64,000 nt of DNA from Vulcanimicrobiota bacterium (GTDB taxonomy: Bacteria > Vulcanimicrobiota > Vulcanimicrobiia > Vulcanimicrobiales > Vulcanimicrobiaceae), in assembly GCA_027459645.1 (NCBI GenBank), contig DAIDHQ010000028.1:1-64000 (forward strand), written 5' to 3'. Positions within the stretch are counted from its first letter, which is position 1; each line of letters begins with the position of its first letter. A program made the position numbers and the translations under genes. Of the stretch, positions 30,289-43,838 are shown one piece after another. The notes beneath the pieces were generated by a model. It made no database searches. It was not told the DNA's origin and worked only from the letters and a program-made list of their open reading frames with translations.

Positions 30289-30304
30289 GATGATACCTCG
30301 CTTC

Positions 30305-30359
30305 GGGCTTTGCCTATAAAATGGCAGTTGCCCATAAAACCTGGAACCTGCCCATAAAA
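30305..30359 (+). repeat. Left-end iterons (TGCCYATAAAA x3)
   Basis: Three copies begin at 30,311 (TGCCTATAAAA), 30,329 and 30,349 (TGCCCATAAAA), spaced 18 and 20 bp, about two helical turns. The first is part of the terminal inverted repeat. A degenerate copy, GTCCATAAAA, occurs at 31,229. Confidence 0.75.
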
Positions 30360-30386
30360 GCGAGATGAGAAGCGCCTTTCGGCGAT

Positions 30387-30533
30387 CTACGGTGCAGGAT
30401 CAGGTTCCGGCTGCGGGCGTTTCGTGACGCTCGCGGCGAGCCGAACTGTAAGTTCGGGCTGGATGCTCACCACGTCGATGAGCCCGCGTTCGATGAGGGC
30501 GTGAAGGGCGCGATCTGGAGTCATCTCTGTCAT
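30387..30533 (-). CDS. Possible small protein at the island's left end
   Basis: A 48-residue frame (MTEMTPDRALHALIERGLID... with a Pro-rich end) that is compositionally protein-like. The open frame upstream of this ATG is very basic and looks spurious. The 390-bp stretch between ribBA and the gene at 30,682 otherwise holds only the iterons. No family is recognised. Confidence 0.3.
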   Translation of the reverse strand: MTEMTPDRALHALIERGLIDVVSIQPELTVRLAASVTKRPQPEPDPAP

Positions 30534-30681
30534 CTGCCCAGCTTGGCGCTCGAAGGTTTCCGGCGTATGGCCGAATCGTGGACGGGTGTTTGGTATCCGG
30601 GTTCCCGATATACTGACGCCCCGCCCGAGAATCGAGCGGGGCGCTTTGCGCCGGGTGGTGCGCCAGGGCTTCCTATCCTTC

Positions 30682-31179
30682 CTAGGGCTTCGACGCCTTC
30701 GCGCGGCGGACCGCTTCCTCAAACTCGTCGGCTGTTACGTCAAACTCGAAGCGATCGACCGTAACGCCCTGCTCGGCCAGCGCCTTTTTGCCGCGAAGGA
30801 ACTCCGCGACCTCGGCGATACGGCTCTCGCGCAACGACGGATCGTGAACATTGCAGCGCGTTAATGCCCACCCATTTACGACTTGCAACCCACCAGGGGC
30901 ACCGCAAACTTCGCAAGTCGTGCGCGAGCGCAATTCAGCAGACTCAACCGCATCCACCACGCTTTTAGGAATCTCGCCGCCTTGAAGGTCCACGCGCAGC
31001 TCGCCGAATTTTTCTTTGATGCCGACCAGCGCGATTGTCGCTCGCTCGGCTGCATCGGCACAGTCGCGAACGAGTTCGTGCCAGCCATCGCCGCACTCAA
31101 TCACAGCAACGTCGCGTAGTGCGATCGGGAACTCGCTCCGCAGCTCGTCTTCAATCTCCGGCATCATAGTTCGAAGCAT
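30682..31179 (-). CDS. Hypothetical protein with Cys/His zinc-like motif
   Basis: A 165-residue acidic protein. The N-terminal half ('ALRDVAVIECGDGWHELVRDC...IKEKFGELRVDL') resembles a small alpha/beta domain. The middle contains CxxC (TTCEVCGAPG) and, 20 residues on, 'RCNVHD', a possible zinc site. The C-terminus is a charged helix. ATGs at 31,167/31,164 are alternative starts. It is the last gene of the minus-strand block in the island and may be co-transcribed with the gene ending at 31,250. Confidence 0.6.
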   Translation of the reverse strand: MLRTMMPEIEDELRSEFPIALRDVAVIECGDGWHELVRDCADAAERATIALVGIKEKFGELRVDLQGGEIPKSVVDAVESAELRSRTTCEVCGAPGGLQVVNGWALTRCNVHDPSLRESRIAEVAEFLRGKKALAEQGVTVDRFEFDVTADEFEEAVRRAKASKP

Positions 31180-31249
31180 ACCACGGCTTGATATTGCTTA
31201 GGAACGGGGTCGGCGAAGACGCGGCCCGTCCATAAAAGGCAAGCCACGT

Positions 31250-32044
31250 TCAGAACAACGACAAGTTTTCGATGATGCGTGGCGGATAAAACAGACCGCA
31301 GATTATCCAGTTCTGCGGATGCTGGTGGACGGTACCCACGAAGAAATGGGTATCGCGCTCTTCGATCATCTCGGCTTCATACCGTTGCCGAAATTTCTCT
31401 TCCCAGTTGTCGCCGTATTGGCGGCGGAACTTACGATAAGATTCGCCGATTTCCCAGTCGGTGCAACTGAGTTGATGCCCGTTACACGTTTCGTGATCGC
31501 ATTTGAAGTGATAATAGAATCCATATGGAATTTTTTCTAGCGGGCGTTTCGGCGTTTTGCCGAACAGATCGCCTTGGCTTATGAGAACCGCCTGCTCCGC
31601 AGTCCAATTTGGATTAACCGGGGTGATTCGAAGCTTCTTGATTTCTCTTGGACGAAAGATACCGAGCGTGGGATGACCGTCGCGTTTTTGCCTTTCCATC
31701 AGACAGCACAGGCAATGCGATAGCAGCGGCCGGAGAGCGCTCTTGCGATCGCGCCAGGCGTAGCGCGTCGGCAATGGGTCCGACAGTATCGTTATCCCGT
31801 CACCGCTTAATTTGTAGCTCTCCGGCCGTACGTCGCTCGTGCTCTTCGAGACCGCAACCTCGACCCACTGATACTTGCGAAACCGTTTATCGCTGTCTAG
31901 GAGACGCCACGGGACCGGGAACAACCTGATCCACTCCGCGTTTTCAGTAATTGCGGCCGTACAGGACACCTCGACTCCGCTGTGAGCTGGCGTGGGATAG
32001 GTTTTGACGACGATCAGGACTTTCTTAGTCTCGCGCAACGCCAC
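31250..32044 (-). CDS. Conserved hypothetical partner of DUF488
   Basis: A 264-residue protein beginning 'KKVLIVVKTYPTPAHSGVEV', then 'CTAAITENAEWIRLFPVPWR', 'YQWVEVAVSK', 'DVRPESYKL', and a Cys/His cluster 'KCDHETCNGHQLSC' with 'WEIGESYRKF'. I recall this architecture as a conserved family found next to DUF488 genes; its biochemical role is unknown to me. It follows the DUF488 gene by 12 bp. Confidence 0.7.
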   Translation of the reverse strand: MALRETKKVLIVVKTYPTPAHSGVEVSCTAAITENAEWIRLFPVPWRLLDSDKRFRKYQWVEVAVSKSTSDVRPESYKLSGDGITILSDPLPTRYAWRDRKSALRPLLSHCLCCLMERQKRDGHPTLGIFRPREIKKLRITPVNPNWTAEQAVLISQGDLFGKTPKRPLEKIPYGFYYHFKCDHETCNGHQLSCTDWEIGESYRKFRRQYGDNWEEKFRQRYEAEMIEERDTHFFVGTVHQHPQNWIICGLFYPPRIIENLSLF

Positions 32045-32056
32045 ACCAGCGCATCC

Positions 32057-32584
32057 CTAGAGGTCGTAGCCTCTGAGCCCAAGAGCTTCAAGGGCGATAA
32101 ACAATCGGTGGCGGTGACACTCTCCCGGATCAATCTCAACGCACATCAGCGCCACGGGATGTTCTAGTGAGTTTAGAAAACGGTGAAGATTCCGGCCCGG
32201 ATACAACGGTACTACGTACTTGTCGTACCACTCCCAGATATATTCGCGATTGCCGGCCGCTGCCGCCTTGGAGCGCACCGTCGATGGAACACCGAGTTCT
32301 CGTAGGTGCGTGTACGCAATCCCGCGGCCTTCAACGTGGCGCTGGAGGTTTGACTTGCTCAACTCCGGTCGATACATACTAACGGCGTTATATCGAATAT
32401 CGACCAGAGTGCGAACTCCGTGCTCCTCAAGCAACCCCAACAGGTCGTCAATGTTCCGGCCGGTATAGCCAACCGTAAAGAAGTCGGCATCGTTTGGCGA
32501 TCTCGCGTCGTTCCAAATCGCCTTCCGTTCCACTTGCTGTTTCGCGGGCGCGCTTGGTAGTGCAATATGGTTGAATAGTGCCAT
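32057..32584 (-). CDS. DUF488 family protein
   Basis: 'FFTVGYTGRNIDDLLGLLEE' followed by 'VRTLVDIRYNAVSMYRPELS' and the conserved C-terminal 'ALMCVEIDPGECHRHRLFIAL' are the defining DUF488 motifs (usually CxExxPxxCHR). Enzymatic activity is not established; the Cys-Glu-His set hints at catalysis or metal binding. 175 residues, second gene of the minus-strand operon. Confidence 0.88.
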   Translation of the reverse strand: MALFNHIALPSAPAKQQVERKAIWNDARSPNDADFFTVGYTGRNIDDLLGLLEEHGVRTLVDIRYNAVSMYRPELSKSNLQRHVEGRGIAYTHLRELGVPSTVRSKAAAAGNREYIWEWYDKYVVPLYPGRNLHRFLNSLEHPVALMCVEIDPGECHRHRLFIALEALGLRGYDL

Positions 32585-32593
32585 AGGGCTGCA

Positions 32594-32980
32594 CTATTTG
32601 AGTTGCCAGCGAATAATACCGCCTTTGTCGCGCTTGCGCTCAAGCCCGATCTCTTCTTCAAGCTGACGAACCCACTTGTTGTTCGGGAACGCCTGCGGCA
32701 GCTTCGCTAAAGTGCGAATCTCGGTCCAGGTTAGAGCGCGCTCGGCACCGCGCAGCGTCTTTTCGACGATTATCTTGAAATCGTCAAAACGCATCATAGC
32801 TTTTGTCCTGGGCCGATCCCAGTTGGCGCTCTTACACTTCGGGCAGATGCTCGGTTCGCCAGTGCTTCGTGGCAACCACTCGTGGTGACACCTCTCACAA
32901 CGATAACCCATCACCGTGATCGGCACTCGCGCCACTACCGTACCTCGGGGCCAAAAGCCCAACAGATTAGAATCACCCAC
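32594..32980 (-). CDS. Zinc ribbon plus winged-helix-like small protein
   Basis: 'YRCERCHHEWLPRS...PSICPKCKSANWDRPR' (CxxC-x(15-20)-CxxC) is a zinc ribbon. It is followed by a helical domain with 'ALTWTEIRTLAKLPQAFPNNKWVRQLEEEIGL', which resembles a winged-helix DNA-binding segment (quoted as a pattern). The GTG at 32,980 sits just at the expected transcription start of the minus-strand promoter, so a leaderless start is plausible; the ATG at 32,911 is the alternative. First gene of the island operon and a candidate regulator of it. Confidence 0.65.
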   Translation of the reverse strand: MGDSNLLGFWPRGTVVARVPITVMGYRCERCHHEWLPRSTGEPSICPKCKSANWDRPRTKAMMRFDDFKIIVEKTLRGAERALTWTEIRTLAKLPQAFPNNKWVRQLEEEIGLERKRDKGGIIRWQLK

Positions 32981-32987
32981 CTATTAG

Positions 32988-33023
32988 AGTATACCTTGAC
33001 AGGTTTACGTTTGCAAGTATACT
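32988..33023. promoter_or_regulatory. Overlapping divergent promoters in a palindrome
   Basis: Plus strand: TTGACA (32,996-33,001), 16-bp spacer, TATACT (33,018-33,023). Minus strand: TTGCAA (33,011-33,016), 17-bp spacer, TATACT (32,993-32,988). The two promoters lie face to face over the same DNA inside a near-palindrome GTATACCTTG...CAAGTATAC. Only one can be occupied at a time. The plus transcript would have an about 80-nt structured leader before the transposase ATG; the minus transcript would begin at the GTG of the zinc-ribbon gene. Confidence 0.7.
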
Positions 33024-33111
33024 TAGTTAGGTAAAACGGTCGATAGGCCAAAACTGAAGCCGCCCAGGTGCTGTAACACCCGAGCGGCGCGTGAACGCGA
33101 GGTACTAGCTC

Positions 33112-34368
33112 ATGTCCACTATCGGTAAGGATACCTCCAACGCCCAGGCGAGGGAAGCCCGCGAGCAGCGCGGCCTTGAAATCGCCGCCACCAAGAAGCT
33201 GAAGCAAAAGGGAGACTTGTGGCTCGTCCCATCGACGACCGGCGTTGGCACGTACGTTGTCGATACGACGGTCTACGGTCCCGCTACGTGCACATGCCCC
33301 GATTTCGAGCTACGTGGTGGTCCATGCAAGCACGTCCATGCCGTCGAGTTTACGCTCCGGCGTGAAACCCAAACTAAAAACGGCACCGTGACGGAAACGA
33401 TCACGTACCGCCAAGAGTGGGGCGCATACAATGCCGCGCAAGCGAACGAGAAAGTTCGCCTGGCTGAACTATTGCACAACCTCTGCTCCGTGATTGATAA
33501 CCCGGTCCAGGGGCGTGGTCGTCCGCGCTTGCCGATGTCGGACGCGCTTTTCTGCGCCACGATGAAGGTCTACAGCGGAATGTCCGCACGTCGTGCGACG
33601 AGCGATCTTCGCGAATTCGCGGAACGTGGTCTGATCGACAAAGCGCCGCACTATAATTCCGTGATTAACGCGCTAGAGAATCCTGACCTAACGCCGTTTC
33701 TTCGGGCGCTCATCGAAGAAAGCGCGGCCCCGCTCGCGACGCTTGAAACGGACTTCGCGGCGGACAGCAGCGGCTTTTCCACGAATGTCTATGCGCGATG
33801 GTTCAATGCTAAGTATGGAAAGGAGATGGCCTACAATTTCTGGGTGAAGGCCCACGTCATGGTTGGAACTCGCACGAATGTCATAACCGCGGTGGAGGTT
33901 ACCGATCATCGGACGAACGATTCGCCCATGCTTCCGACGCTTCTTCAGGCATCGGCGAAGCGTTTCACGATGAAGCGCGTCTCAGCCGACAAAGGCTACT
34001 TAGCCGATTCAAACGTGCAAGCGATCGCAGCTCACGGAGCGGAAGCGTTCATCGCGCCGAAAGTTTCTACCGTGCTTAACCGCCCCGTCGATGCAAGCCG
34101 CAAGAAATCCGAAACCTGGGATCGGATGCTGCACTACTACCACTACCGGAAGGATGATTTTCTTCGGCACTATCACCGGCGCTCGAACGTCGAAACGACG
34201 TTCCATATGATTAAGGCGAAGTTCGGTAGCCGCATCCGGTCAAAGAGTGCGACGGCGATGGTCAACGAGGTCCTGTGCAAGGTCCTCTGCCACAACCTGT
34301 GCGTGCTCGTGCAGTCGATCTATGAACTCGGGATCGAGGCAACGTTCTGGAAATCGGAGGTTGCCTGA
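33112..34368 (+). CDS. DDE transposase with N-terminal SWIM zinc finger
   Basis: The N-terminal SWIM motif 'CTCPDFELRGGPCKHVHAVEF' (CxCx(n)CxH; about residues 60-82, given as a pattern) precedes an IS4/IS5-like DDE domain. Candidate catalytic residues are Asp in 'DFAADSSGFSTNVYARW', Asp in 'VSADKGYLADSN' and Glu in 'RRSNVETTFHMIKAKFG'. 418 residues and apparently intact. I recall close relatives in Planctomycetes and other phyla as single-gene insertion sequences. No inverted repeats of its own are apparent within about 100 bp on either side, so it may use the island termini. Confidence 0.85.
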   Translation: MSTIGKDTSNAQAREAREQRGLEIAATKKLKQKGDLWLVPSTTGVGTYVVDTTVYGPATCTCPDFELRGGPCKHVHAVEFTLRRETQTKNGTVTETITYRQEWGAYNAAQANEKVRLAELLHNLCSVIDNPVQGRGRPRLPMSDALFCATMKVYSGMSARRATSDLREFAERGLIDKAPHYNSVINALENPDLTPFLRALIEESAAPLATLETDFAADSSGFSTNVYARWFNAKYGKEMAYNFWVKAHVMVGTRTNVITAVEVTDHRTNDSPMLPTLLQASAKRFTMKRVSADKGYLADSNVQAIAAHGAEAFIAPKVSTVLNRPVDASRKKSETWDRMLHYYHYRKDDFLRHYHRRSNVETTFHMIKAKFGSRIRSKSATAMVNEVLCKVLCHNLCVLVQSIYELGIEATFWKSEVA

Positions 34369-34399
34369 TTGCCATGCAGAAAAATGCCAATAATGACGC

Positions 34400-34426
34400 T
34401 TGACATTTTGAGAACGGCATCATAAT
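34400..34426 (+). promoter_or_regulatory. Promoter-like sequence before hsdM
   Basis: TTGACA at 34,400-34,405 and CATAAT at 34,421-34,426 with a short 15-bp spacer. The CATAAT overlaps the ATG at 34,425. If this promoter fired, transcription would begin at or inside the heptamer tract, so the ATG would need another promoter. Its activity is uncertain. Confidence 0.35.
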
Positions 34427-34433
34427 GGCTAAG

Positions 34434-34517
34434 AAGCCGCAAGCCGCAAGCCGCAAGCCGCAAGCCGCAAGCCGCAAGCCGCAAGCCGCAAGCCGCAAGC
34501 CGCAAGCCGCAAGCCGC
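34434..34517 (+). repeat. Heptanucleotide tandem repeat (AAGCCGC)x12
   Basis: Twelve perfect, uninterrupted 7-bp units. The tract begins nine bases after an ATG (34,425) and ends two bases before the first codon of the conserved hsdM frame (34,519). Because 7 is not a multiple of 3, each gain or loss of a unit changes the reading frame. Translated in any frame it gives a seven-residue period (PQAASRK). Confidence 0.97.
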
Positions 34518-34518
34518 A

Positions 34519-36705
34519 CTAAGTGTACTTCGGGACGATAAGGGGCGAATCTTCAGCCATGTTCGTAAAAAGTGGCTTTTAGAGACTCCAGAAGAGCGAG
34601 TGCGCCAAGAATATCTTTGCGTACTGGTTAACGAGTATGGCTTCGAACTCGATCAGATAGGTGAAGAGCTTTCCGTTACGAAGCGAGGGGCAGGCCAAGC
34701 ACGTGCAGACCTTCTCGTCTGGCGCACCGTCGTGGAAAAGAGCGAGGAGAAGCTTCCCCTAATCGTTGTCGAGTGCAAGGCCGACAACGTGAGCATCGAC
34801 CCCGCGACGTATAAGCAAGGCGCGAACTACGCCCAATACTGCAAGGCGCGCTTTTTTGTTACTCATAATAACCGGCAGACCCGCTATTGGAACGTCGATC
34901 ACGCGCGGATGATGCCGAATTATGACGAGATTGAGAATATCCCACACGCGGACGATAGCGACAAAGAAATAGAGGCCTTGATCGCTCGCCTTAAGGTGTT
35001 CAAAGAAAACGAGTTCGCCGACCTGCTTCACGAATGCCACAATGTCATCCGCAATCGTGAGGCGCACGATCCTACGAAGGCATTCGACGAGACCGCGAAG
35101 ATTCTGTTTATCAAGGTCTTCGTCGAACGCGAGATGAGGGAAAAGAAGCAGCGGAAAAACATCTTCAGTGTCGAGGTGCTGGATGAGCAATTCGGAGATG
35201 ACCCGCTTAACGATCTCTTCGAGAAGACGAAGAAGCACTACGCGAAGGACGCGCTATTCGCGCCGGACGAAAAAATCAACCTAAAGCGCGAAACCGGTAG
35301 AGCGATCGTCAAGCTCCTGGAGAAATATAACCTCTCTGACACGTCCGAGGACATCAAAGGCATCGCTTTCGAGCGGTTCCTAGGACGGACATTTCGCGGC
35401 GAAATAGGCCAGTTCTTTACGCCGCGTTCCATCGTCGAGTTTATGATTAGGATGCTTGATCCGAAGGAAGGCGAGGTCATCTGCGACCCGGCGGCTGGCT
35501 CCGGCGGATTCTTGATCCGATTTTTCGAGATAGTTCGTGAGCAAATTCTAGCAGACGCCGACCGTGAATACATTGAGTTTTCCGAAGCTCTGACGAAAGA
35601 CGCGAGACTTAGCGAAAGTCGGCGCGCGAAGCTCCTTACCACCAAGTATGCCGAAATACAAGCCGGAATCGACCAGCGAACCGAGGGCGCGCGATTATGG
35701 ACTCTCGCAAATCGCTGCATTTATGGTACTGACAAGAACGATCGTATGGCGCGCACCAGCAAAATGAACATGATTATGCACGGTGACGGGCATGGCGGGG
35801 TGCATCACTGGAACGGCTTCCTTAACGTCAACGGTATCTTCGAGGGCCGCTTCGATTTGATCCTTACGAACCCACCGTTCGGCGCGAAGGTCGAAGGTGA
35901 CGAGAAGATTCTCGAAAATGAAATTCATCTGGACGAAGACATTGAGCGCCACTACGAGCGTCAACATGGTGGTGCTTACAAGAAGGCTCGCGCTGCTCTA
36001 AAGGCAGCAGTCGGGAGATCCATAGCTTCGCTATTCAGTCTTCCCAAAGGCGAAGGCAGTAAGATCAATACCGAAGTTCTATTCATCGAACGCTGCCTCG
36101 ATTTACTTAAGCCTGGTGGTCGCCTCGGCATCGTACTGCCAGAGGGCGTGTTTAGCAATCCTTCGCTTGCCTACGTGCGCGAATTTGTGGAAGATCGCGC
36201 TTTCGTGGACGCCGTCGTAAGTCTTCCATCGGAGACATTCAAGGCTAGTGGCGCATCGGTGAAATGCTCCCTGTTATTTTTGCGGAAGTTCACCGAAGGG
36301 GAAGCCACTAGCTTTGAGCGTGAGCGCAAACGTGCGTACGACGACACTTCGGACAAATACGCTAACGAAATGAGCGCCGAGCGCCTGCGCCTGCAGGCTT
36401 CCATCGACGCGGCCACTCGACGCAAGCCGCGGGATGCGAATGCCATCCGAGTAGCAAAAAAATCGTTGACGGATTATGAAAGGACGATGCTATCGAAAAT
36501 TACGGATGAATCGCGCGCGTTGCTCAAGCAGCGGTTTGACTATCCGGTGTTCATGTACGAGGCGGCAAAGGTCGGCATCAACTCTACGGGTGAATCGGAC
36601 GACAACGAACTCATCCCGAATGATCGCCTCCCGACGGGTGTCGTAAAAAGCGCGTTAGAGGTATTCCAAGACTATCGCAAAGACCCCGTACCATTTCTAG
36701 TCTGA
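34519..36705 (+). CDS. hsdM: Type I-like DNA methyltransferase HsdM with N-terminal nuclease-like domain; phase-variable
   Basis: The only in-frame start codon downstream of the repeat is GTG at 34,600. Conserved family sequence in the same frame starts at 34,519 ('VLRDDKGRIFSHVRKKW', then 'LLETPEERVRQEYL'), so initiation upstream of the repeat is expected. From the ATG at 34,425 the current 12 units lead to a stop at 34,537-34,539, the OFF state. Domain order: HSDR_N-like PD-(D/E)xK region ('ARADLLVWRT...LIVVECKAD'), an HsdM helical domain ('DTSEDIKGIAFERFLG'), and an N6-adenine methylase with 'DPAAGSGGFLI' and 'ILTNPPFG'. It is followed after 8 bp by hsdS. No hsdR is seen. Confidence 0.9.
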   Translation, partial: LSVLRDDKGRIFSHVRKKWLLETPEERVRQEYLCVLVNEYGFELDQIGEELSVTKRGAGQARADLLVWRTVVEKSEEKLPLIVVECKADNVSIDPATYKQGANYAQYCKARFFVTHNNRQTRYWNVDHARMMPNYDEIENIPHADDSDKEIEALIARLKVFKENEFADLLHECHNVIRNREAHDPTKAFDETAKILFIKVFVEREMREKKQRKNIFSVEVLDEQFGDDPLNDLFEKTKKHYAKDALFAPDEKINLKRETGRAIVKLLEKYNLSDTSEDIKGIAFERFLGRTFRGEIGQFFTPRSIVEFMIRMLDPKEGEVICDPAAGSGGFLIRFFEIVREQILADADREYIEFSEALTKDARLSESRRAKLLTTKYAEIQAGIDQRTEGARLWTLANRCIYGTDKNDRMARTSKMNMIMHGDGHGGVHHWNGFLNVNGIFEGRFDLILTNPPFGAKVEGDEKILENEIHLDEDIERHYERQHGGAYKKARAALKAAVGRSIASLFSLPKGEGSKINTEVLFIERCLDLLKPGGRLGIVLPEGVFSNPSLAYVREFVEDRAFVDAVVSLPSETFKASGASVKCSLLFLRKFTEGEATSFERERKRAYDDTSDKYANEMSAERLRLQASIDAATRRKPRDANAIRVAKKSLTDYERTMLSKITDESRALLKQRFDYPVFMYEAAKVGINSTGESDDNELIPNDRLPTGVVKSALEVFQDYRKDPVPFLV

Positions 36706-36713
36706 GTCGATCC

Positions 36714-38111
36714 ATGAAACATACGATGAGCTTTGCGGTGATGTTTTCGAAGACGTCACGTTGGGACGTTTCTGGATTCTCGCGCGTGGAATGGCGGTGG
36801 CCGGCAAGCGTCCTAAAGCCGCTGGGAGCGGCGCTTGTTCGAGTCGTTAAAGAGTTCCCGGATTCAATGCCAAGACGCGACATACCGATCATCGAGAAGA
36901 TTTCTTTTGCAGGTGAGCTAACCCTCACTGCGCCGGAAGATCGCCTGACGTATAAAGGGCGACTGTTTAAGGCAACATCGGGACAATTGATCTATAGTAA
37001 GATTCGCGTCAAGCAAGGTTCGCTCTGCGTAGTCCCAAGCAACACTAAGGCTGTGGGTGTCAGCACCGAATATCCGGTATTTGAGATTCGGAGCGATGTT
37101 GCACTTGGAGCGTACCTCGAACTTGCATTGAGGACGCCGATGTTTCAAAAGCAGTTGCATGGACTAGCGCATGGCGGCGACACGAAAACCCGTATCGATC
37201 CAGATCAATTCCTCGGAATCGAACTTCCAATCCCGTCGATTTCGGCTCAGCGAGCGATTATTTCGCATTGGCAGCAAGCGCAAGCGGAGATTGCTGGTAT
37301 GGAAAGTAGCGCAAGGCGCATCGAACATGAAGCCTCCGCCAAGTTCCTAGATGCATTAGGTATATCTAAGCACGCTGAAAAAATGCCAAGTAACAGCTTC
37401 GCCTTAAAATGGTCAGAAGTACAGCGTTGGAGTTTTGAATCTACTCGGAGAAGCGCAGCGGTACGAACCTACTCGTCTTCGCGCTATCCGATGATGCTCG
37501 GCACGGAGTGCCTTGCGAGCGTGTCGCACGGTTGCTCGGCTTCACCATCGGACCGTCCAACCCAATTAAAAATCCTTAAGATCAGCGCGGTTACCCGAGG
37601 TAGACTTGATTTAGCTCAATGGAAGCACGCGCCGAATCGCGAGGAACTCCGCCAACGTTTTGCCTTACGTGATGGCGATGTCTTGCTCTGCCGCACGAAT
37701 GGTACGCTCGACTATGTAGGAATGTCGGCGTTAGTCGAACGCGATCAAGCTGATTTCATTTTCCCTGACAAACTCATCCGGGTGCGTTGTCGCCCAACGC
37801 TCTTGCCCGCCTTTCTTTGGCGTCTACTGCAACTGCCCGTGATGCGAACCCAGATCGAAGCCGCTGCGCGAACCGCCGTAGGCAACTACGCGATTGGTAC
37901 TACAGATTTGTGGAGATTCAAGTATCCGCTCCCGCCCCCCGAAGTCCAAGCCGCCCTCGTAGCAGATTTCGCGAAGGCCGCCATAAGGGCAGACGCGCTA
38001 CGCACCCAGGCCTACCAGCGTAGAAAATCTGTTGGAGATGAGGTGGAAGCGATGGTGCTCGGGTCGCTGCCGGTAACGGACTTTAGAAATCAGCAGGCGG
38101 CGATCGTTTGA
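36714..38111 (+). CDS. hsdS: Type I restriction specificity subunit
   Basis: 465 residues with two target-recognition regions separated by a central helical segment ('SISAQRAIISHWQQAQAEIAGMESSARR', quoted as a pattern), plus a second at the C-terminus ('PLPPPEVQAALVADFAKAAIRADALR'), the classic HsdS layout. 'RIDPDQFLGIELPIPS' and 'YAIGTTDLWRFKYPLP' are the TRD-ending motifs. It sets the bipartite DNA target for HsdM. The second half looks less conserved than the first. Confidence 0.88.
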   Translation: MKHTMSFAVMFSKTSRWDVSGFSRVEWRWPASVLKPLGAALVRVVKEFPDSMPRRDIPIIEKISFAGELTLTAPEDRLTYKGRLFKATSGQLIYSKIRVKQGSLCVVPSNTKAVGVSTEYPVFEIRSDVALGAYLELALRTPMFQKQLHGLAHGGDTKTRIDPDQFLGIELPIPSISAQRAIISHWQQAQAEIAGMESSARRIEHEASAKFLDALGISKHAEKMPSNSFALKWSEVQRWSFESTRRSAAVRTYSSSRYPMMLGTECLASVSHGCSASPSDRPTQLKILKISAVTRGRLDLAQWKHAPNREELRQRFALRDGDVLLCRTNGTLDYVGMSALVERDQADFIFPDKLIRVRCRPTLLPAFLWRLLQLPVMRTQIEAAARTAVGNYAIGTTDLWRFKYPLPPPEVQAALVADFAKAAIRADALRTQAYQRRKSVGDEVEAMVLGSLPVTDFRNQQAAIV

Positions 38112-38190
38112 CCGCCGCCTGCTCGCTGCGCGGCGGGCTTCCCATCCGGCCGGATTGAGTATGATTCGGTGCCCTTCACGTTGCTAACTA

Positions 38191-38259
38191 GGGGCTGCCC
38201 ATAAAATCAGGACTCTGCCCATAAATTCAACCTAAAAAGCGACTTTATGGGCAAAGCCC
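38191..38259. repeat. Right-end iterons of the island
   Basis: TGCCCATAAAA at 38,196-38,206 and TGCCCATAAAT at 38,216-38,226 are direct copies 20 bp apart, oriented like those of the left end. A third, inverted copy within TTTATGGGCAAAGCCC (38,244-38,259) forms the terminal repeat. The remaining 38,112-38,342 stretch contains no gene. Confidence 0.75.
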
Positions 38260-38342
38260 TCGCTTCGCGACTGCCGGACGCACAGGGAGCGGGCGCTTAC
38301 TTAGCTCTCGCCGCGATGGCGGTGGACTTGGCGCGTCCTCGT

Positions 38343-39221
38343 TTACCAGACGCCCACGCCGGCATCGCCGAGGAAATGCACGCAGACCGCGATGGCGATG
38401 TTGCCGGTACGTAGCGTGAGATAGCCCATCGCCAATCCGAACACGCTCATCTCCGCGATCATCAGTCCAGCCGCATGCACGACGTTTCCATGCGAAAGGT
38501 TCATCGTGTACCCAATGTGCATGAACCCGAAGAGCAGCGCTTGCACGACGAGCGCCGCTTCCGTCGACATCATCGCGCGCAAACGCCCCATCAGCGCGCC
38601 GCGAAAAAAGGCTTCTTCGGGGAACCCGTTTTGGAGGAAATTCGCCACCCACACCAGTCCCATGTGACCGAGTGACATCTGGTGCGACGCCAATACTCCG
38701 CCGAAGTGGACGACTGCGGTAAAGAGCCACAGGATTGCGACTAACACGCTTCCCTTGCGGAATGCGCCGAAGCCAAGGTCGCGAGCCTTGACGCCCAAGA
38801 GCAGCAATACCGCAAAAATCGGCAGCACGTCGATCGCGACGTTCGCAACGCCGTTTGCGACGGCAGGCTCGTGAAACACGCGAAGTCCCCATGCATTAAC
38901 CGCATCGTGGGCGATGTCGAACGGATTCCACGGCATCTTCACGCCGAGATTGAACGCTATGCCGGTGCCGGCGATACCGATGAAGCATACCGCTAGCGCC
39001 GCGACCTGCAGGGCCGGCATACGGCCGGGAGTGGGAGGAGGTTCGCCAACGTCGTTGCCGCGCGTCAGCCACCAGGTCAGCCCGCAAAAGACGATCGCTT
39101 CGAATCCCCAGTCGAGCGCACTGCCCGCAGCGCCGTTGAGCCCGCCCTGCGGCCAAAGCACGATGACAGCCAATATCCAGAGGACAACATAGCCCGCAAT
39201 CCAGGGTGATATTCGCTTCAT
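38343..39221 (-). CDS. CPBP-family intramembrane glutamic protease
   Basis: A 292-residue membrane protein with eight or so hydrophobic segments and the three CPBP (Abi/Rce1) motifs: 'NGFPEEAFFRGALMGRL' (EExxxR), 'FGFMHIG' (FxxxH) and 'CVHFLGDAG' (HxxxD/N). Family members process CAAX-like peptides, bacteriocins or anti-sigma factors. It lies directly outside the right end of the island. Confidence 0.88.
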   Translation of the reverse strand: MKRISPWIAGYVVLWILAVIVLWPQGGLNGAAGSALDWGFEAIVFCGLTWWLTRGNDVGEPPPTPGRMPALQVAALAVCFIGIAGTGIAFNLGVKMPWNPFDIAHDAVNAWGLRVFHEPAVANGVANVAIDVLPIFAVLLLLGVKARDLGFGAFRKGSVLVAILWLFTAVVHFGGVLASHQMSLGHMGLVWVANFLQNGFPEEAFFRGALMGRLRAMMSTEAALVVQALLFGFMHIGYTMNLSHGNVVHAAGLMIAEMSVFGLAMGYLTLRTGNIAIAVCVHFLGDAGVGVW

Positions 39222-39240
39222 CGGTGGCTTTTACACAAGA

Positions 39241-39330
39241 GCGTTGAGCAATGTTTCGCGGATCGGTGCGCGGAGCGGCATGCGAGGCGTCATGATAGAA
39301 GACCAAGTGATGAGCGCCGGTGCAAAGCCA
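39241..39330 (-). pseudogene. Remnant of a thioesterase gene 3' end
   Basis: On the minus strand the sequence encodes '...APALITW' then 'RMPLRAPIRETLL' and a stop. This parallels 'HAPALMGDW' and 'SMPLPPPIRETLL' of the intact thioesterase at 43,380-43,838, with the part between deleted. At DNA level 39,246-39,283 matches 43,407-43,444 at 34 of 38 positions. Confidence 0.55.
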
Positions 39331-39367
39331 ATACGACGCGCCAAAAGTACTCTTCTTACCGCCAAGC

Positions 39368-40804
39368 TCAATTGGAAGCTTGACCAGAGGTTTCGTCAAG
39401 CTCCAGCATCGCCTCAATACAAAAACGCATCGCCGTGATATCGACCGCCTCCAGCGCTCGTTGCCACTTCACCACGATCGTTTGATTGTCAAATGGGAAC
39501 AGTATTCTTCTGCGCTCGATATTCACTACCGTCTCGTCGGTTTGGTAGTCGTCGATCGGCGCGACCTCCGCTTCAAAGTGTTCGGCAAACAGCGCCCGTA
39601 GGACGCTCAGCCGCTCTGCCCTGCTGGCCGCCTCGGCCATCAAGGGCAAGGCGAGCACGAGCTTCGTTAGTGGAGAATACCTTCGCGCGCGCGACGCCGG
39701 AAACGTCAGCACACGCTCTCGTGTGAGGACAGCTTCCGTACGGTCCGAGCTGCGGATCCCCTGGGCTACGAAGTGAACCACTCTGGCTCCGCCGCTTTCG
39801 TCGGTTTCCGCAAAAACATAGGACGCCTCTTCACCGGCTTCCAGCTTTTTCCGAATTTCGCGTCCGATATTGCCGCGGCTAGCTAACAAATGCAGCAAGC
39901 GCCTCTGCTTCGCGCGTGCTGCGTGCTCGTTTTCGAACGATGCGACGAGTTGGTCGTTCTCGGACGCCTCATAGAGCGTCACCCGATCCTGCGAATGTTC
40001 CAGTGCGGCGAGGAAGAGGCTGACCTGATTGGATGCACGGCGTCGCAGGCTGATGTCGCGTCCAACGGTGATACGCATGGGATTACCATGGCTGCTTTCG
40101 AACGCGTGATCGACGAATTCGAACCAAAACTCACTACCGTTTTTACGGCGTATCAACAACTCGCGAAAATTAGTACGCCCTGCAGCGATCGTCGAGCGGA
40201 TCGCTTCCAGAACCGCCGCGTCATTGGCGGGCGAATAATTTATATCGTAGCGCTGCCCGATAAGCTCGCGCTCTTCGCGTCCAACCGATTCGCATAACGC
40301 CCGGTTCACATATACTATGCGGGGACCGCCGGCATCGATTGGAGTAGCGTCGGTCACTTGAATTAACTCGCCAGAGTTTTCAACCGCCTCAGAGAGCATC
40401 ATCAGGCGCTCCTCTTGAGTGCGCCGCTCGGTGACATCGTACATGTCCAAAAAGCAGTGATACGGGGGAGCGGCGATCGTATGGACCTCGGCCCAGAACC
40501 ATGAACGGTCCTTGCGATAGAGCTTTAGCTCAATGCGCACGTTCTCGCCGCGCCGCACCGAGTCGATACAGCGCAGCACCAGACGCCGGTCGGTACCTGG
40601 ACCGAGGATCGCTGGATAGACGCCCGCATCGTGTTCGTCGCGCGTATAGCCCGTAAGACGATAGAAACTATCGTTTGCGTAGACGATAGGCGGACGCAAT
40701 GGAACTCCGGCATCGAGGCGCACGATGAACATTGCGGTCGGAGCATCGTTGACAAAACGGGCGAGCATTCGGTCGAGGTCGGGGACTAGCAAATCGGTAT
40801 CCAC
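39368..40804 (-). CDS. PAS-domain sensor protein with orphan C-terminal domain
   Basis: Two PAS/PAC modules: about residues 15-130 ('IVYANDSFYRLTGYTRDEH', 'DMYDVTERRTQEERL') and 135-260 ('VYVNRALCESVGREERELIG', 'VGRDISLRRRASNQ'). The last 200 residues match no output domain I know: no histidine kinase, GGDEF or EAL. They end in a 'RRILFPFDNQTIVVKWQRALEAVDI' segment (quoted as a pattern). Starts with GTG. Divergent from the GGDEF-EAL gene across a 120-bp gap, suggesting a shared signalling theme. Confidence 0.8.
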   Translation of the reverse strand: MDTDLLVPDLDRMLARFVNDAPTAMFIVRLDAGVPLRPPIVYANDSFYRLTGYTRDEHDAGVYPAILGPGTDRRLVLRCIDSVRRGENVRIELKLYRKDRSWFWAEVHTIAAPPYHCFLDMYDVTERRTQEERLMMLSEAVENSGELIQVTDATPIDAGGPRIVYVNRALCESVGREERELIGQRYDINYSPANDAAVLEAIRSTIAAGRTNFRELLIRRKNGSEFWFEFVDHAFESSHGNPMRITVGRDISLRRRASNQVSLFLAALEHSQDRVTLYEASENDQLVASFENEHAARAKQRRLLHLLASRGNIGREIRKKLEAGEEASYVFAETDESGGARVVHFVAQGIRSSDRTEAVLTRERVLTFPASRARRYSPLTKLVLALPLMAEAASRAERLSVLRALFAEHFEAEVAPIDDYQTDETVVNIERRRILFPFDNQTIVVKWQRALEAVDITAMRFCIEAMLELDETSGQASN

Positions 40805-40923
40805 GGCTTTCAGTGCATTGTTTGAAGTGCGTCCTTATGAACCGGGTCTATTTCTGTCATATTTTCGGCAAGATGGTGAAGCGCACCGCCCCCTCTGCCC
40901 GATGAATAATAAATGGAGGGTGA

Positions 40924-43383
40924 GTGGGCCGAGTGATTCCCTTGCAACTACTGCGCTTTCAGCGTGTTCTCACGGATGCCGCCATGCGCCTTGCAGGGGG
41001 CGCGACTGCGGAGGACCTCTTCACCTCCCTGGCGCCCGCACTCTGTACGACGTTCGGCGTTAGACGCGTCGTTGTATCAGCTCGCTCGGGGTTTAGTCGC
41101 GACTTTGGCGCTAGCTCAGACGATTCCGGCTCAATTCGCGCCGCTTATCCAGTCCTCGTCGACGGCGGCGAGGGCGGAAGGATCGAGCTTACGATTGGCC
41201 CGGCAAACACGCAGGGTTACCTAACGTCCGCGATGCAAGACGTATGCTCGCTCTTTTCCATTGCTTTGGCCGACCACCCCCGCGCTCCTTCGCAAGTAGA
41301 ACGGGAAGACTGGCGCTCGCTCTTTGACGAGCATCCCGCTCCACTACTGGTGTACGCCGTAGAAGACGCCCGTATCCTTGCCGTAAATGCGGCATTTTGT
41401 GAAAGCTATGGCTATGACGCGATCGAGCTGCTGGGGCGCCGTTTTACCGACGTCTGCATTCCCGACGCAGAATACGCAGAACTCATCGGCCTACATGAAG
41501 ATTCAACTAATGCTCCAGTCCGCTGTAGGCACCAAAAGCGCAACGGCATGCGTTTAGATGTGGAAGTTACGACGCGGTACTGCTTGTGGCTCGGCGAGTC
41601 GGCCTGTATCGCGCTTATCAACGATGTTACCAGCCGAACCCGGATCGAGCGACGGCTTGTAGAGAGCGAGAGGCGCCTCGAACGCGTTCAAGCGATCGGC
41701 GGCGTCGGGATTTTCGAAGTGGATTTGCGCAGCGGTCAACGCTATTGGTCGAAAGAACTCTACCACCAACTAGGTGTCGCACTTGGCAATGCGCTTCCGT
41801 GTTCCAAGACCTTCAGTCTCGACGAGGTGCACCCGGAGGATCGCGAGGCAGTACGTACCGCGTTCGACGCAGCAATGAAAGAACATGCCACGGTGCGAGT
41901 CGATCACCGCGTCATTCACCCTTCAGGGGAAGTGGTGTGGTTGCAACTCCAAGCAGACGTAGACTTCGATGCTGACGGCACTCCCATCCGCGTCATCGGC
42001 ACGACTGTCGATATCACAGATCGTAAGCACGCCGAAGAACAACTCGGCTTTCTCGCTCACTACGATCCCCTAACGCGTTTGGCAAATCGGCAAAATGCCA
42101 TGAGCCGATTACGCAATCTGCTTCAATATCAGCGCAAGCGCACGCGCCCCACGTTACTTTTCGTCGATCTCGATCATTTCAAAGAAATCAACGATACGAT
42201 GGGACACGAAGCCGGCGACCAAGTGCTAATCGAGATAGGCTCGCGCCTACAGAAAGCCCTCCGCGACAGCGACTGTGTTGCGCGCATCGGAGGCGACGAG
42301 TTCGTCGTCATCATGTCAAACGACACTGACGTCGACAAAACGCACATCGTCGCGGGCCGCATCATTGCAGCAGTCGAGAAGCCGCTTCGCGTAGCGGGTC
42401 GGGAAATCATTCTCACATGCAGCGTAGGAATCGCGCAGGCTCCGAGCGAGGGCATCGATGTCGAAGGTCTGGTGAGCCGTGCCGACATGGCGATGTATCA
42501 CGCAAAACGCACCGGCCGTAACCGTTTCGCGATTTACGAAGATAATATGCTACGGGAGACACTTGAGCGCTTCCAGACGGAATCAGAACTTCGCCTCGCA
42601 ATCGAGCGTAGAGAGTTCTTTTTACTTTATCAGCCGATTATGAGCATCAGCCAACGCGAGTTGACGGGAGTCGAGGCGCTCGTGCGGTGGCGTCATTCAA
42701 GTGGAGTTCGGACTCCAGATCAGTTCATCAGGATCGCTGAAGACAGCGATATAATCCTCGCAGTCGACGATTGGGTTTTACGAGAGGCATGCCGTCAGGG
42801 AACCATTTGGTTACGCGAATGCCCCGGGATATGTATGTCGGTTAACGTTTCGCGACGACAACTCAGTGACCCGAACTACGCAAGGCACGTGTTAGCGGTT
42901 CTAGACGAAGTGGGGTTTGACCCAAAATCGCTCCAGCTCGAGCTCACGGAAACCACGCTAACCAGCGACCTAGGACATGCCCGTAACGTCCTCTTCGAAC
43001 TCCGCCAAGCCGGCGTTCGCATCGCAATCGATGATTTCGGAACCGGGTACAATTCGCTCGCTAATCTTCGCTACTTTTCGATCGATGCATTAAAAATCGA
43101 TCGTTCCTTCACAAGTGGTGTAAACTCCAGCCCAAGCGATATGGCGATCGCGGGTGCCGTAGTGTCGGCCGGACGGAACCTTGGAATCCGTGTCATAGCA
43201 GAAGGCGTTGAAAACGAAGATCATATCGATACGCTTCGTCGCCTCGGGTGCGACGACGCGCAGGGATACTGGTTCAGCAAACCCATCGCAGCCGACTGCT
43301 TCGAGCAGCAATTCATTCGTGTGCACTCGACTCCGGCGCCATCTGCGTTGACTGAGACGACACCGGAAACTGCGCGGGCCTAG
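40924..43383 (+). CDS. Diguanylate cyclase/phosphodiesterase (PAS-PAS-GGDEF-EAL)
   Basis: 819 residues. A GAF-like N-domain (about 10-120) is followed by PAS about 130-240, PAS/PAC about 250-375, GGDEF about 380-540 with an intact 'RIGGDEFVVI' and an RxxD inhibitory site (RDSD) five residues before it, and EAL about 555-800 with 'GVEALVRW' and 'DDFGTGYNSLANLR'. Both c-di-GMP synthesis and hydrolysis appear possible. The GTG start follows GGAGG by four bases. The stop overlaps the convergent thioesterase stop by 4 bp. Confidence 0.95.
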   Translation: MGRVIPLQLLRFQRVLTDAAMRLAGGATAEDLFTSLAPALCTTFGVRRVVVSARSGFSRDFGASSDDSGSIRAAYPVLVDGGEGGRIELTIGPANTQGYLTSAMQDVCSLFSIALADHPRAPSQVEREDWRSLFDEHPAPLLVYAVEDARILAVNAAFCESYGYDAIELLGRRFTDVCIPDAEYAELIGLHEDSTNAPVRCRHQKRNGMRLDVEVTTRYCLWLGESACIALINDVTSRTRIERRLVESERRLERVQAIGGVGIFEVDLRSGQRYWSKELYHQLGVALGNALPCSKTFSLDEVHPEDREAVRTAFDAAMKEHATVRVDHRVIHPSGEVVWLQLQADVDFDADGTPIRVIGTTVDITDRKHAEEQLGFLAHYDPLTRLANRQNAMSRLRNLLQYQRKRTRPTLLFVDLDHFKEINDTMGHEAGDQVLIEIGSRLQKALRDSDCVARIGGDEFVVIMSNDTDVDKTHIVAGRIIAAVEKPLRVAGREIILTCSVGIAQAPSEGIDVEGLVSRADMAMYHAKRTGRNRFAIYEDNMLRETLERFQTESELRLAIERREFFLLYQPIMSISQRELTGVEALVRWRHSSGVRTPDQFIRIAEDSDIILAVDDWVLREACRQGTIWLRECPGICMSVNVSRRQLSDPNYARHVLAVLDEVGFDPKSLQLELTETTLTSDLGHARNVLFELRQAGVRIAIDDFGTGYNSLANLRYFSIDALKIDRSFTSGVNSSPSDMAIAGAVVSAGRNLGIRVIAEGVENEDHIDTLRRLGCDDAQGYWFSKPIAADCFEQQFIRVHSTPAPSALTETTPETARA

Positions 43384-43838
43384 GAAGGTTCCGGCTGCAT
43401 AGCGACGAGCAATGTTTCGCGAATCGGCGGGGGGAGCGGCATGCTCTTGCGGGTTTCGCGGCCCATGCACGCGACCGTTAACGAGAGCACCGCGCTCGCT
43501 TCTTCCGTCCGCTCGTTGAACATCACGGTCTTCCAGCGCACGCTCGATGCGCCGATTTTCACTAGATGCGTTCGCATCCGAAGCCAATCACCCATGAGCG
43601 CCGGCGCGTGATAGTCGGCCTCGGCGTGCACGCGCGGCAACCAAAACTCGTACTGTTCGAAGACGCGATCGTACGGGAAGCCAAGCTCGCGAAACATCTC
43701 CATCTCGGCATATTCCGCAAAGCGCCAGTACGTCGGGAAATACATGATGCCGGCGATATCGACGTCCGCCCATTGCACGGGCAGACGCGCATGGAAGACG
43801 CGCGCTCCCTCCGGCAAATCGTCGTGAAAGCGCGGCAT
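43380..43838 (-). CDS. Acyl-CoA thioesterase, hot-dog fold (YbgC/FadM type)
   Basis: 'LPVQWADVDIAGIMYFPTYWRFAEYAEMEMF' carries the 4-hydroxybenzoyl-CoA-thioesterase signature with the catalytic Asp (DVDIAGIMY; given as a pattern). 152 residues, complete. Its ATG overlaps the ribE stop by one base, so it is translated from the ribD-ribE message. A broken duplicate of its 3' end lies at 39,241. Confidence 0.85.
   Translation of the reverse strand: MPRFHDDLPEGARVFHARLPVQWADVDIAGIMYFPTYWRFAEYAEMEMFRELGFPYDRVFEQYEFWLPRVHAEADYHAPALMGDWLRMRTHLVKIGASSVRWKTVMFNERTEEASAVLSLTVACMGRETRKSMPLPPPIRETLLVAMQPEPS

What the first reader, a model, noticed from the sequence alone, without database searches (positions are those of the whole stretch)
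34425..34620. Phase-variable methyltransferase: (AAGCCGC)12 between ATG and hsdM, currently out of frame
The conserved HsdM N-terminal sequence begins directly after the repeat but has no start codon in its frame until GTG 34,600, inside the conserved region. The ATG at 34,425 reads through all 12 units into a stop at 34,537. Loss of one unit or gain of two (11, 14, 17...) would join ATG and hsdM. Heptamer tracts in a type I-like methylase are rare compared with tetra- or pentamer tracts in Neisseria and Haemophilus phasevarions.
Basis: seen in the sequence. Interest (0 to 1): 0.9.

Follow-up and report, generated by a model that had tools for sequence, protein, structure and literature searches.

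The report
Heptamer on/off switch in restriction-modification gene
A perfect run of twelve 7-base repeats sits between the start codon and the body of a gene for a combined DNA-cutting and DNA-marking defence enzyme, so gaining or losing repeats should switch the whole enzyme on or off; in the sequenced genome it is switched off.

Summary
(AAGCCGC)12.1 lies at 34434-34518, directly after ATG 34425. No ATG/GTG/TTG exists in the gene's frame before GTG 34600. Eighty relatives (47-67% identical) start upstream of the conserved block that GTG 34600 would delete, and none has a multi-base tract there. The heptamer is unique in its genome and among 149 genomes of the phylum.

The correction: this is not a plain HsdM. 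It is an R-M fusion (N-terminal PD-(D/E)XK domain plus N6-adenine methylase) followed by one S gene, with no HsdR nearby. The best fold and sequence match is the Type IIB enzyme BsaXI. Slippage should therefore switch cutting and methylation together. The genes lie on a low-GC island absent from relatives.

Closest precedents are H. pylori BcgI-like systems (poly-G in S), C. jejuni Cj0031 (poly-G in a fused R-M gene) and H. influenzae hsdM (pentamer). Length variation itself was not observed; only one genome exists.

The parts
34425..34427 (+). ATG start codon (MAKK...) of the ON-state gene
   Evidence: Only ATG/GTG/TTG that can give the conserved N-terminus, reached in frame at 3k+2 repeat units; several relatives also begin MAKK/MAKN/MSKK
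34434..34518 (+). (AAGCCGC)12.1 heptamer tract; as codons a repeating KPQAASR heptapeptide; free of stop codons in all three frames
34425..34541 (+). OFF-state reading frame, 38 aa, ends at TAA 34539-34541
34516..36705 (+).
34588..34944 (+). HSDR_N_2 (PF13588) PD-(D/E)XK nuclease domain; E50/E51 (34663-34668), D65 (34708-34710), E86/K88 (34771-34779) invariant in 38 aligned proteins
   Evidence: Pfam E 5e-22; conservation
35347..36315 (+). N6_Mtase region (approximate limits); SAM motif DPAAGSGG (35485-35508), catalytic NPPF (35869-35880)
   Evidence: Pfam E 9e-36, three stretches; NPPF in all 80 relatives
34600..34602 (+). GTG, first standard start codon in the gene's frame; codes a Val inside the conserved TPEExVRQ block, so an unlikely native start
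36714..38111 (+). S (specificity) gene, 465 aa, intact
   Evidence: PADLOC Specificity_I E 1e-51; S homologue next to the R-M gene in most related loci
34400..34426 (+). Possible promoter TTGACA-15-CATAAT whose -10 overlaps the ATG; weak, function doubtful
   Evidence: seen in sequence; the scan with 16-18 nt spacers finds nothing
33112..34368 (+). IS5-like transposase with SWIM zinc finger, ending 57 bp before the ATG; single copy in the genome (neighbour, not shown to be part of the switch)

Best explanation
The tract is a slipped-strand ON/OFF translation switch for a two-gene Type IIB-like restriction-modification system. ATG 34425 is the true start. Replication slippage changes the number of 7-base units; 3k+2 units (11, 14, ...) join ATG to the R-M fusion, which with the S subunit should form an (R-M)2S enzyme that methylates adenine and cuts unmodified DNA. 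Other counts near the present one, including the 12 seen, give a dead-end peptide of about 27-45 aa, so cutting and methylation go off together. From 12 units one contraction turns it ON and one expansion leaves it OFF. Shown: tract, frames, domain content, intact motifs, gene order, conserved N-terminus. Inferred: that tract length changes at useful rates, that the enzyme is active, and that selection is for hedging phage defence against gene uptake and self-restriction.
For: Perfect non-triplet tract between the only usable start and the gene. Residues 1-28 of the body, encoded before GTG 34600, are conserved in relatives: S14 97%, R17 95%, W20 88%, T24-P25-E26-E27 94-99%. 75 of 78 relatives have an in-frame ATG 3-57 codons before S14; the 11-unit leader (41 residues before S14) falls within that range. 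Frame intact over 729 codons with nuclease and methylase motifs kept, arguing against an old pseudogene. Structure model: N-terminal hairpin (11-14, 19-22) and helix 25-39 confidently modelled (block pLDDT about 87-92); best PDB fold matches are BsaXI chains, E about 1e-20, and BsaXI is also the best sequence hit. Tract unique in its genome and among 149 genomes of the phylum.
Against: No length variation seen: one assembly, no second strain, no reads. The tract is not conserved in any of 80 relatives, so nothing shows long-term maintenance. No good Shine-Dalgarno before ATG 34425, and the only promoter-like match overlaps the ATG. A fused nuclease-methylase switching ON in an unmethylated cell could be self-harming, although C. 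jejuni Cj0031 tolerates such switching (PMC4889913).
Confidence: 0.8

Rival explanations
1. The gene is simply broken: the tract expanded neutrally in a horizontally acquired R-M gene and left it off, with no selected switching.
For: Relatives lack the tract; no other tetramer-or-longer repeat passes in a 771-kb sample, so this is not a genome rich in such switches; low-GC island (55% against 65% flanks) absent from relatives, next to a transposase.
Against: No other frameshift or stop in 729 codons, catalytic motifs intact, S gene intact. A perfect 12-unit tract is mutable by nature (general knowledge of repeats), so even a neutral one should revert.
Confidence: 0.1
2. Translation starts at GTG 34600 whatever the tract length, giving an N-truncated enzyme; the tract is only a 5' leader.
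For: GTG 34600 is the first standard start in frame; purine-rich AGAAGAG lies just upstream; the promoter-like TTGACA-15-CATAAT would start transcription after ATG 34425.
Against: It would delete an invariant block (S14, P25-E26-E27) and a confidently modelled hairpin plus part of the first helix. The purine stretch codes for the conserved PEER residues and ends only about 3 nt from GTG. In relatives that position is an ordinary Val codon (GTG in 21 of 78).
Confidence: 0.05
3. The repeat count is an assembly error and the real gene has a fixed in-frame number.
For: Draft genome in 47 contigs; tandem repeats can be miscounted in drafts.
Against: The 85-bp tract would fit within an ordinary short read and shows no base errors.
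Confidence: 0.05

Closest known systems
H. [quoted passage not shown]
   Same: Two-gene Type IIB layout (R-M fusion plus S) reported as prone to phase variation by a repeat tract
   Different: Tract is poly-G inside the S gene; here a heptamer at the start of the R-M gene, so both activities should switch. Sequence relation to those genes was not tested.
C. jejuni Cj0031 phase-variable Type IIG enzyme (PMC4889913)
   Same: Nuclease and methylase in one reading frame switched by repeat slippage, with effects on phage restriction and methylation
   Different: Single-chain Type IIG with poly-G at about base 2573; no separate S gene
H. influenzae HsdM with pentanucleotide tract (PMC2651432, PMC7394358)
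   Same: Repeat within a type I-related methylase gene switching it ON/OFF
   Different: Pentamer, true Type I hsdM; nuclease not in the same gene
BsaXI / BcgI Type IIB enzymes (PMC11997821, PMC3874165)
   Same: Domain order nuclease-helical connector-methylase plus S; BsaXI is the best fold and sequence match
   Different: No repeat tract mentioned in the passages read; only distant similarity (18-20% identity over the fold alignment)
H. influenzae hmw1A strain PittAA (AATTTTG)14 in the ORF (PMC2651432)
   Same: In-frame heptamer tract with frameshift
   Different: Adhesin gene in a host-adapted pathogen

Membership tests
Phase-variable gene controlled by a simple sequence repeat | Pure tandem tract, unit not a multiple of 3, between start codon and conserved protein | tested here: met
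Phase-variable gene controlled by a simple sequence repeat | Tract length varies between cells or strains | not testable with these tools
   One genome only; tract absent from the other 148 genomes of the phylum and from 80 homologues
Phase-variable gene controlled by a simple sequence repeat | Expression follows repeat number | not testable with these tools
   needs reporter or proteomics
Type IIB (BcgI/BsaXI-like) R-M system | One polypeptide with N-terminal PD-(D/E)XK nuclease and N6-adenine methylase | tested here: met
   Pfam, conserved E/D/ExK and NPPF, BsaXI top fold hit
Type IIB (BcgI/BsaXI-like) R-M system | Separate S subunit gene | tested here: met
[quoted passage not shown]
   biochemistry needed
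Classical Type I R-M | Separate HsdR translocase gene | tested here: not met
   None among ORFs around the locus; no shared large helicase neighbour in relatives' flanks. An unlinked HsdR elsewhere in the genome was not searched for.
Classical Type I R-M | HsdM equivalog model above cut-off | tested here: not met
   TIGR00497 36 bits against cut-off 243; PADLOC nevertheless files the family as Type I MTase
MADS (methylation-associated defence system) | MAD2 model above cut-off | tested here: not met
   302 bits against cut-off 720

The most novel reading that the evidence does not exclude
The tract switches restriction alone: with in-frame counts the full nuclease-methylase is made, while with other counts a shorter product from GTG 34600, lacking the first part of the nuclease fold, still methylates with S. 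That would let cells turn cutting on and off while the genome stays protected, solving the self-damage problem of switching fused R-M enzymes.
Probability: 0.04. Interest if true: 0.75.

Novelty: new variant of a known kind. Interest (0 to 1): 0.5.

Why it matters
Repeat-driven switching of R-M genes is known mainly from host-adapted pathogens and mostly by mono-, tetra- or pentamers. Here a heptamer controls the first codons of a combined nuclease-methylase on an acquired island, in a phylum in which no other held genome has this tract. If confirmed, one slippage event would switch both defence and epigenetic marking, which bears on how bacteria hedge between phage defence, gene uptake and self-restriction.

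Tried and rejected
Dispersed repeat family: the tract string occurs once in the genome and in no other genome of the phylum. AAGCCGC runs of 4-7 units occur in two viral contigs, apparently between genes and of unknown relation. Transposon ends supplying the tract: no long inverted repeats at the edges and no second copy to define the boundaries, so left open. Classical Type I and MADS membership: rejected. Searching the gene in 60 related genomes gave only distant methylases, so no allelic series could be built. Large neighbour ORFs as a shared HsdR: they do not cluster, and those with a Pfam match among the five scanned are unrelated (an ABC protein, an AcrB-type pump, Mfd, a phage terminase).

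Full report
Observation. The window holds a perfect (AAGCCGC)12.1 array at 34434-34518, immediately after ATG GCT AAG at 34425. Replacing the tract by 0-19 units in silico shows that only 2, 5, 8, 11, 14 or 17 units fuse the ATG to the long frame ending at 36705; 12 units give 38 residues and 13 give 34. In the gene's own frame no ATG, GTG or TTG occurs between 34426 and GTG 34600. In the window no other exact repeat of unit 4-12 nt passes the thresholds. In 771 kb of the same genome the only ones passing are one (GCG)7, seven GC/CG runs and one A9. The triple unit occurs nowhere else in the 3.14-Mb genome, and the four-unit string in none of the 148 other genomes of the phylum searched.

Where the protein really starts. 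Eighty homologues at 47-67% identity were found in species-representative genomes from many phyla. Their frames show a start a short, variable distance before a conserved block, GKIWSHVRKKWLxETPEExVRQEYL. In the window this block is encoded from about 34540 and is split by GTG 34600, the codon for the Val of EExVRQ. Conservation before that Val is high (S14 97%, R17 95%, P25 99%, E26 and E27 97%). 75 of 78 relatives with that region have an in-frame ATG 3-57 codons before S14, and the 11-unit leader would be 41 residues. The model puts a hairpin and the first helix in this stretch with block confidence of about 87-92. ATG 34425 is therefore the credible start, and the tract occupies a leader that is variable in length and sequence in relatives. 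None of the relatives has a multi-base repeat there.

What the protein is. Pfam finds HSDR_N_2 (residues 25-143) and N6_Mtase. E50, E51, D65, E86 and K88 are invariant in 38 aligned proteins, as are the methylase NPPF and the GSGG of the SAM motif. BsaXI uses E73, D90, E105 and K107 (PMC11997821); the order of residues is the same, and the equivalence is inferred. The best PDB sequence match is BsaXI R-M, and the three best fold matches are BsaXI chains (low TM-scores, rmsd large, so the match is of domain content and order rather than of overall pose). The next gene is an S subunit (PADLOC E 1e-51), adjacent in most related loci. No HsdR lies nearby, and large flanking ORFs in relatives share no family. 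This is the R-M plus S layout reviewed as BcgI-like Type IIB, in which both subunits are needed for cutting and methylating (PMC3874165). The TIGR HsdM model and the MADS MAD2 model are well below cut-off.

Setting. The rib genes on either side are near neighbours in relatives: in G001 the ribBA-side match and the edge of the ribE-side match lie on one contig about 1.9 kb apart, and in the single-contig G009 about 1.2 kb apart, against about 13 kb here. The R-M region has 55% GC against 65% in the flanks. The stretch also holds a single-copy transposase and a PDC-M19 candidate defence pair. Horizontal acquisition is the simplest reading.

Mechanism. Slipped-strand mispairing changes unit number, and one count in three gives the full enzyme. 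Because nuclease and methylase share the frame, and S cannot act without them, OFF means neither cutting nor marking. The present 12 is OFF and one contraction away from ON. Rate, activity and benefit are inferred. The main risk to the claim is that variation has not been seen.

Known relatives. Repeat tracts are reported in 2% of hsdM and 7.9% of hsdS genes (PMC7394358). Phase-variable fused R-M genes are known (Cj0031, PMC4889913), and H. pylori BcgI-like systems have a poly-G in S (PMC3936762). In-frame heptamers occur in H. influenzae (PMC2651432), and 6-9 nt repeats in prokaryotes are described as little studied (PMC4692102). New here is the combination: a heptamer at the very start of a Type IIB-like R-M gene, in a genome whose phylum otherwise lacks this tract. 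No paper found in the library described this, but the library lacks many subscription papers; the Type III repeat survey (gky192) was not held, and the Type I survey is known here only through PMC7394358.

Noticed in passing
L104:9370; compare L102:8895, L105:9728, L107:9083: Helicobacter/Campylobacter relatives of the same R-M plus S pair carry an in-frame (AT)n run in the middle of the S gene: 6.5 units with S intact in three, 7.5 units with S split into 207 and 251 aa frames in H. valdiviensis. Possible independent phase variation of specificity.
   Followed up: partly
31250-32584: DUF488 gene and a partner match PADLOC candidate defence pair PDC-M19A/B; a homologous pair lies next to a related R-M plus S system in L052 (Acidobacteria).
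   Followed up: partly
30290-43433: About 13 kb between rib genes is absent from relatives; a low-GC defence-bearing insertion point.
   Followed up: partly
33112-34368: Single-copy IS5-like transposase with an N-terminal SWIM zinc finger; ends 57 bp before the switch. No clear terminal repeats found.
   Followed up: partly
L132:1250-1298 and 2491-2518: A viral contig has two AAGCCGC runs (7 and 4 units), apparently intergenic; relation to this tract unknown.
   Followed up: no
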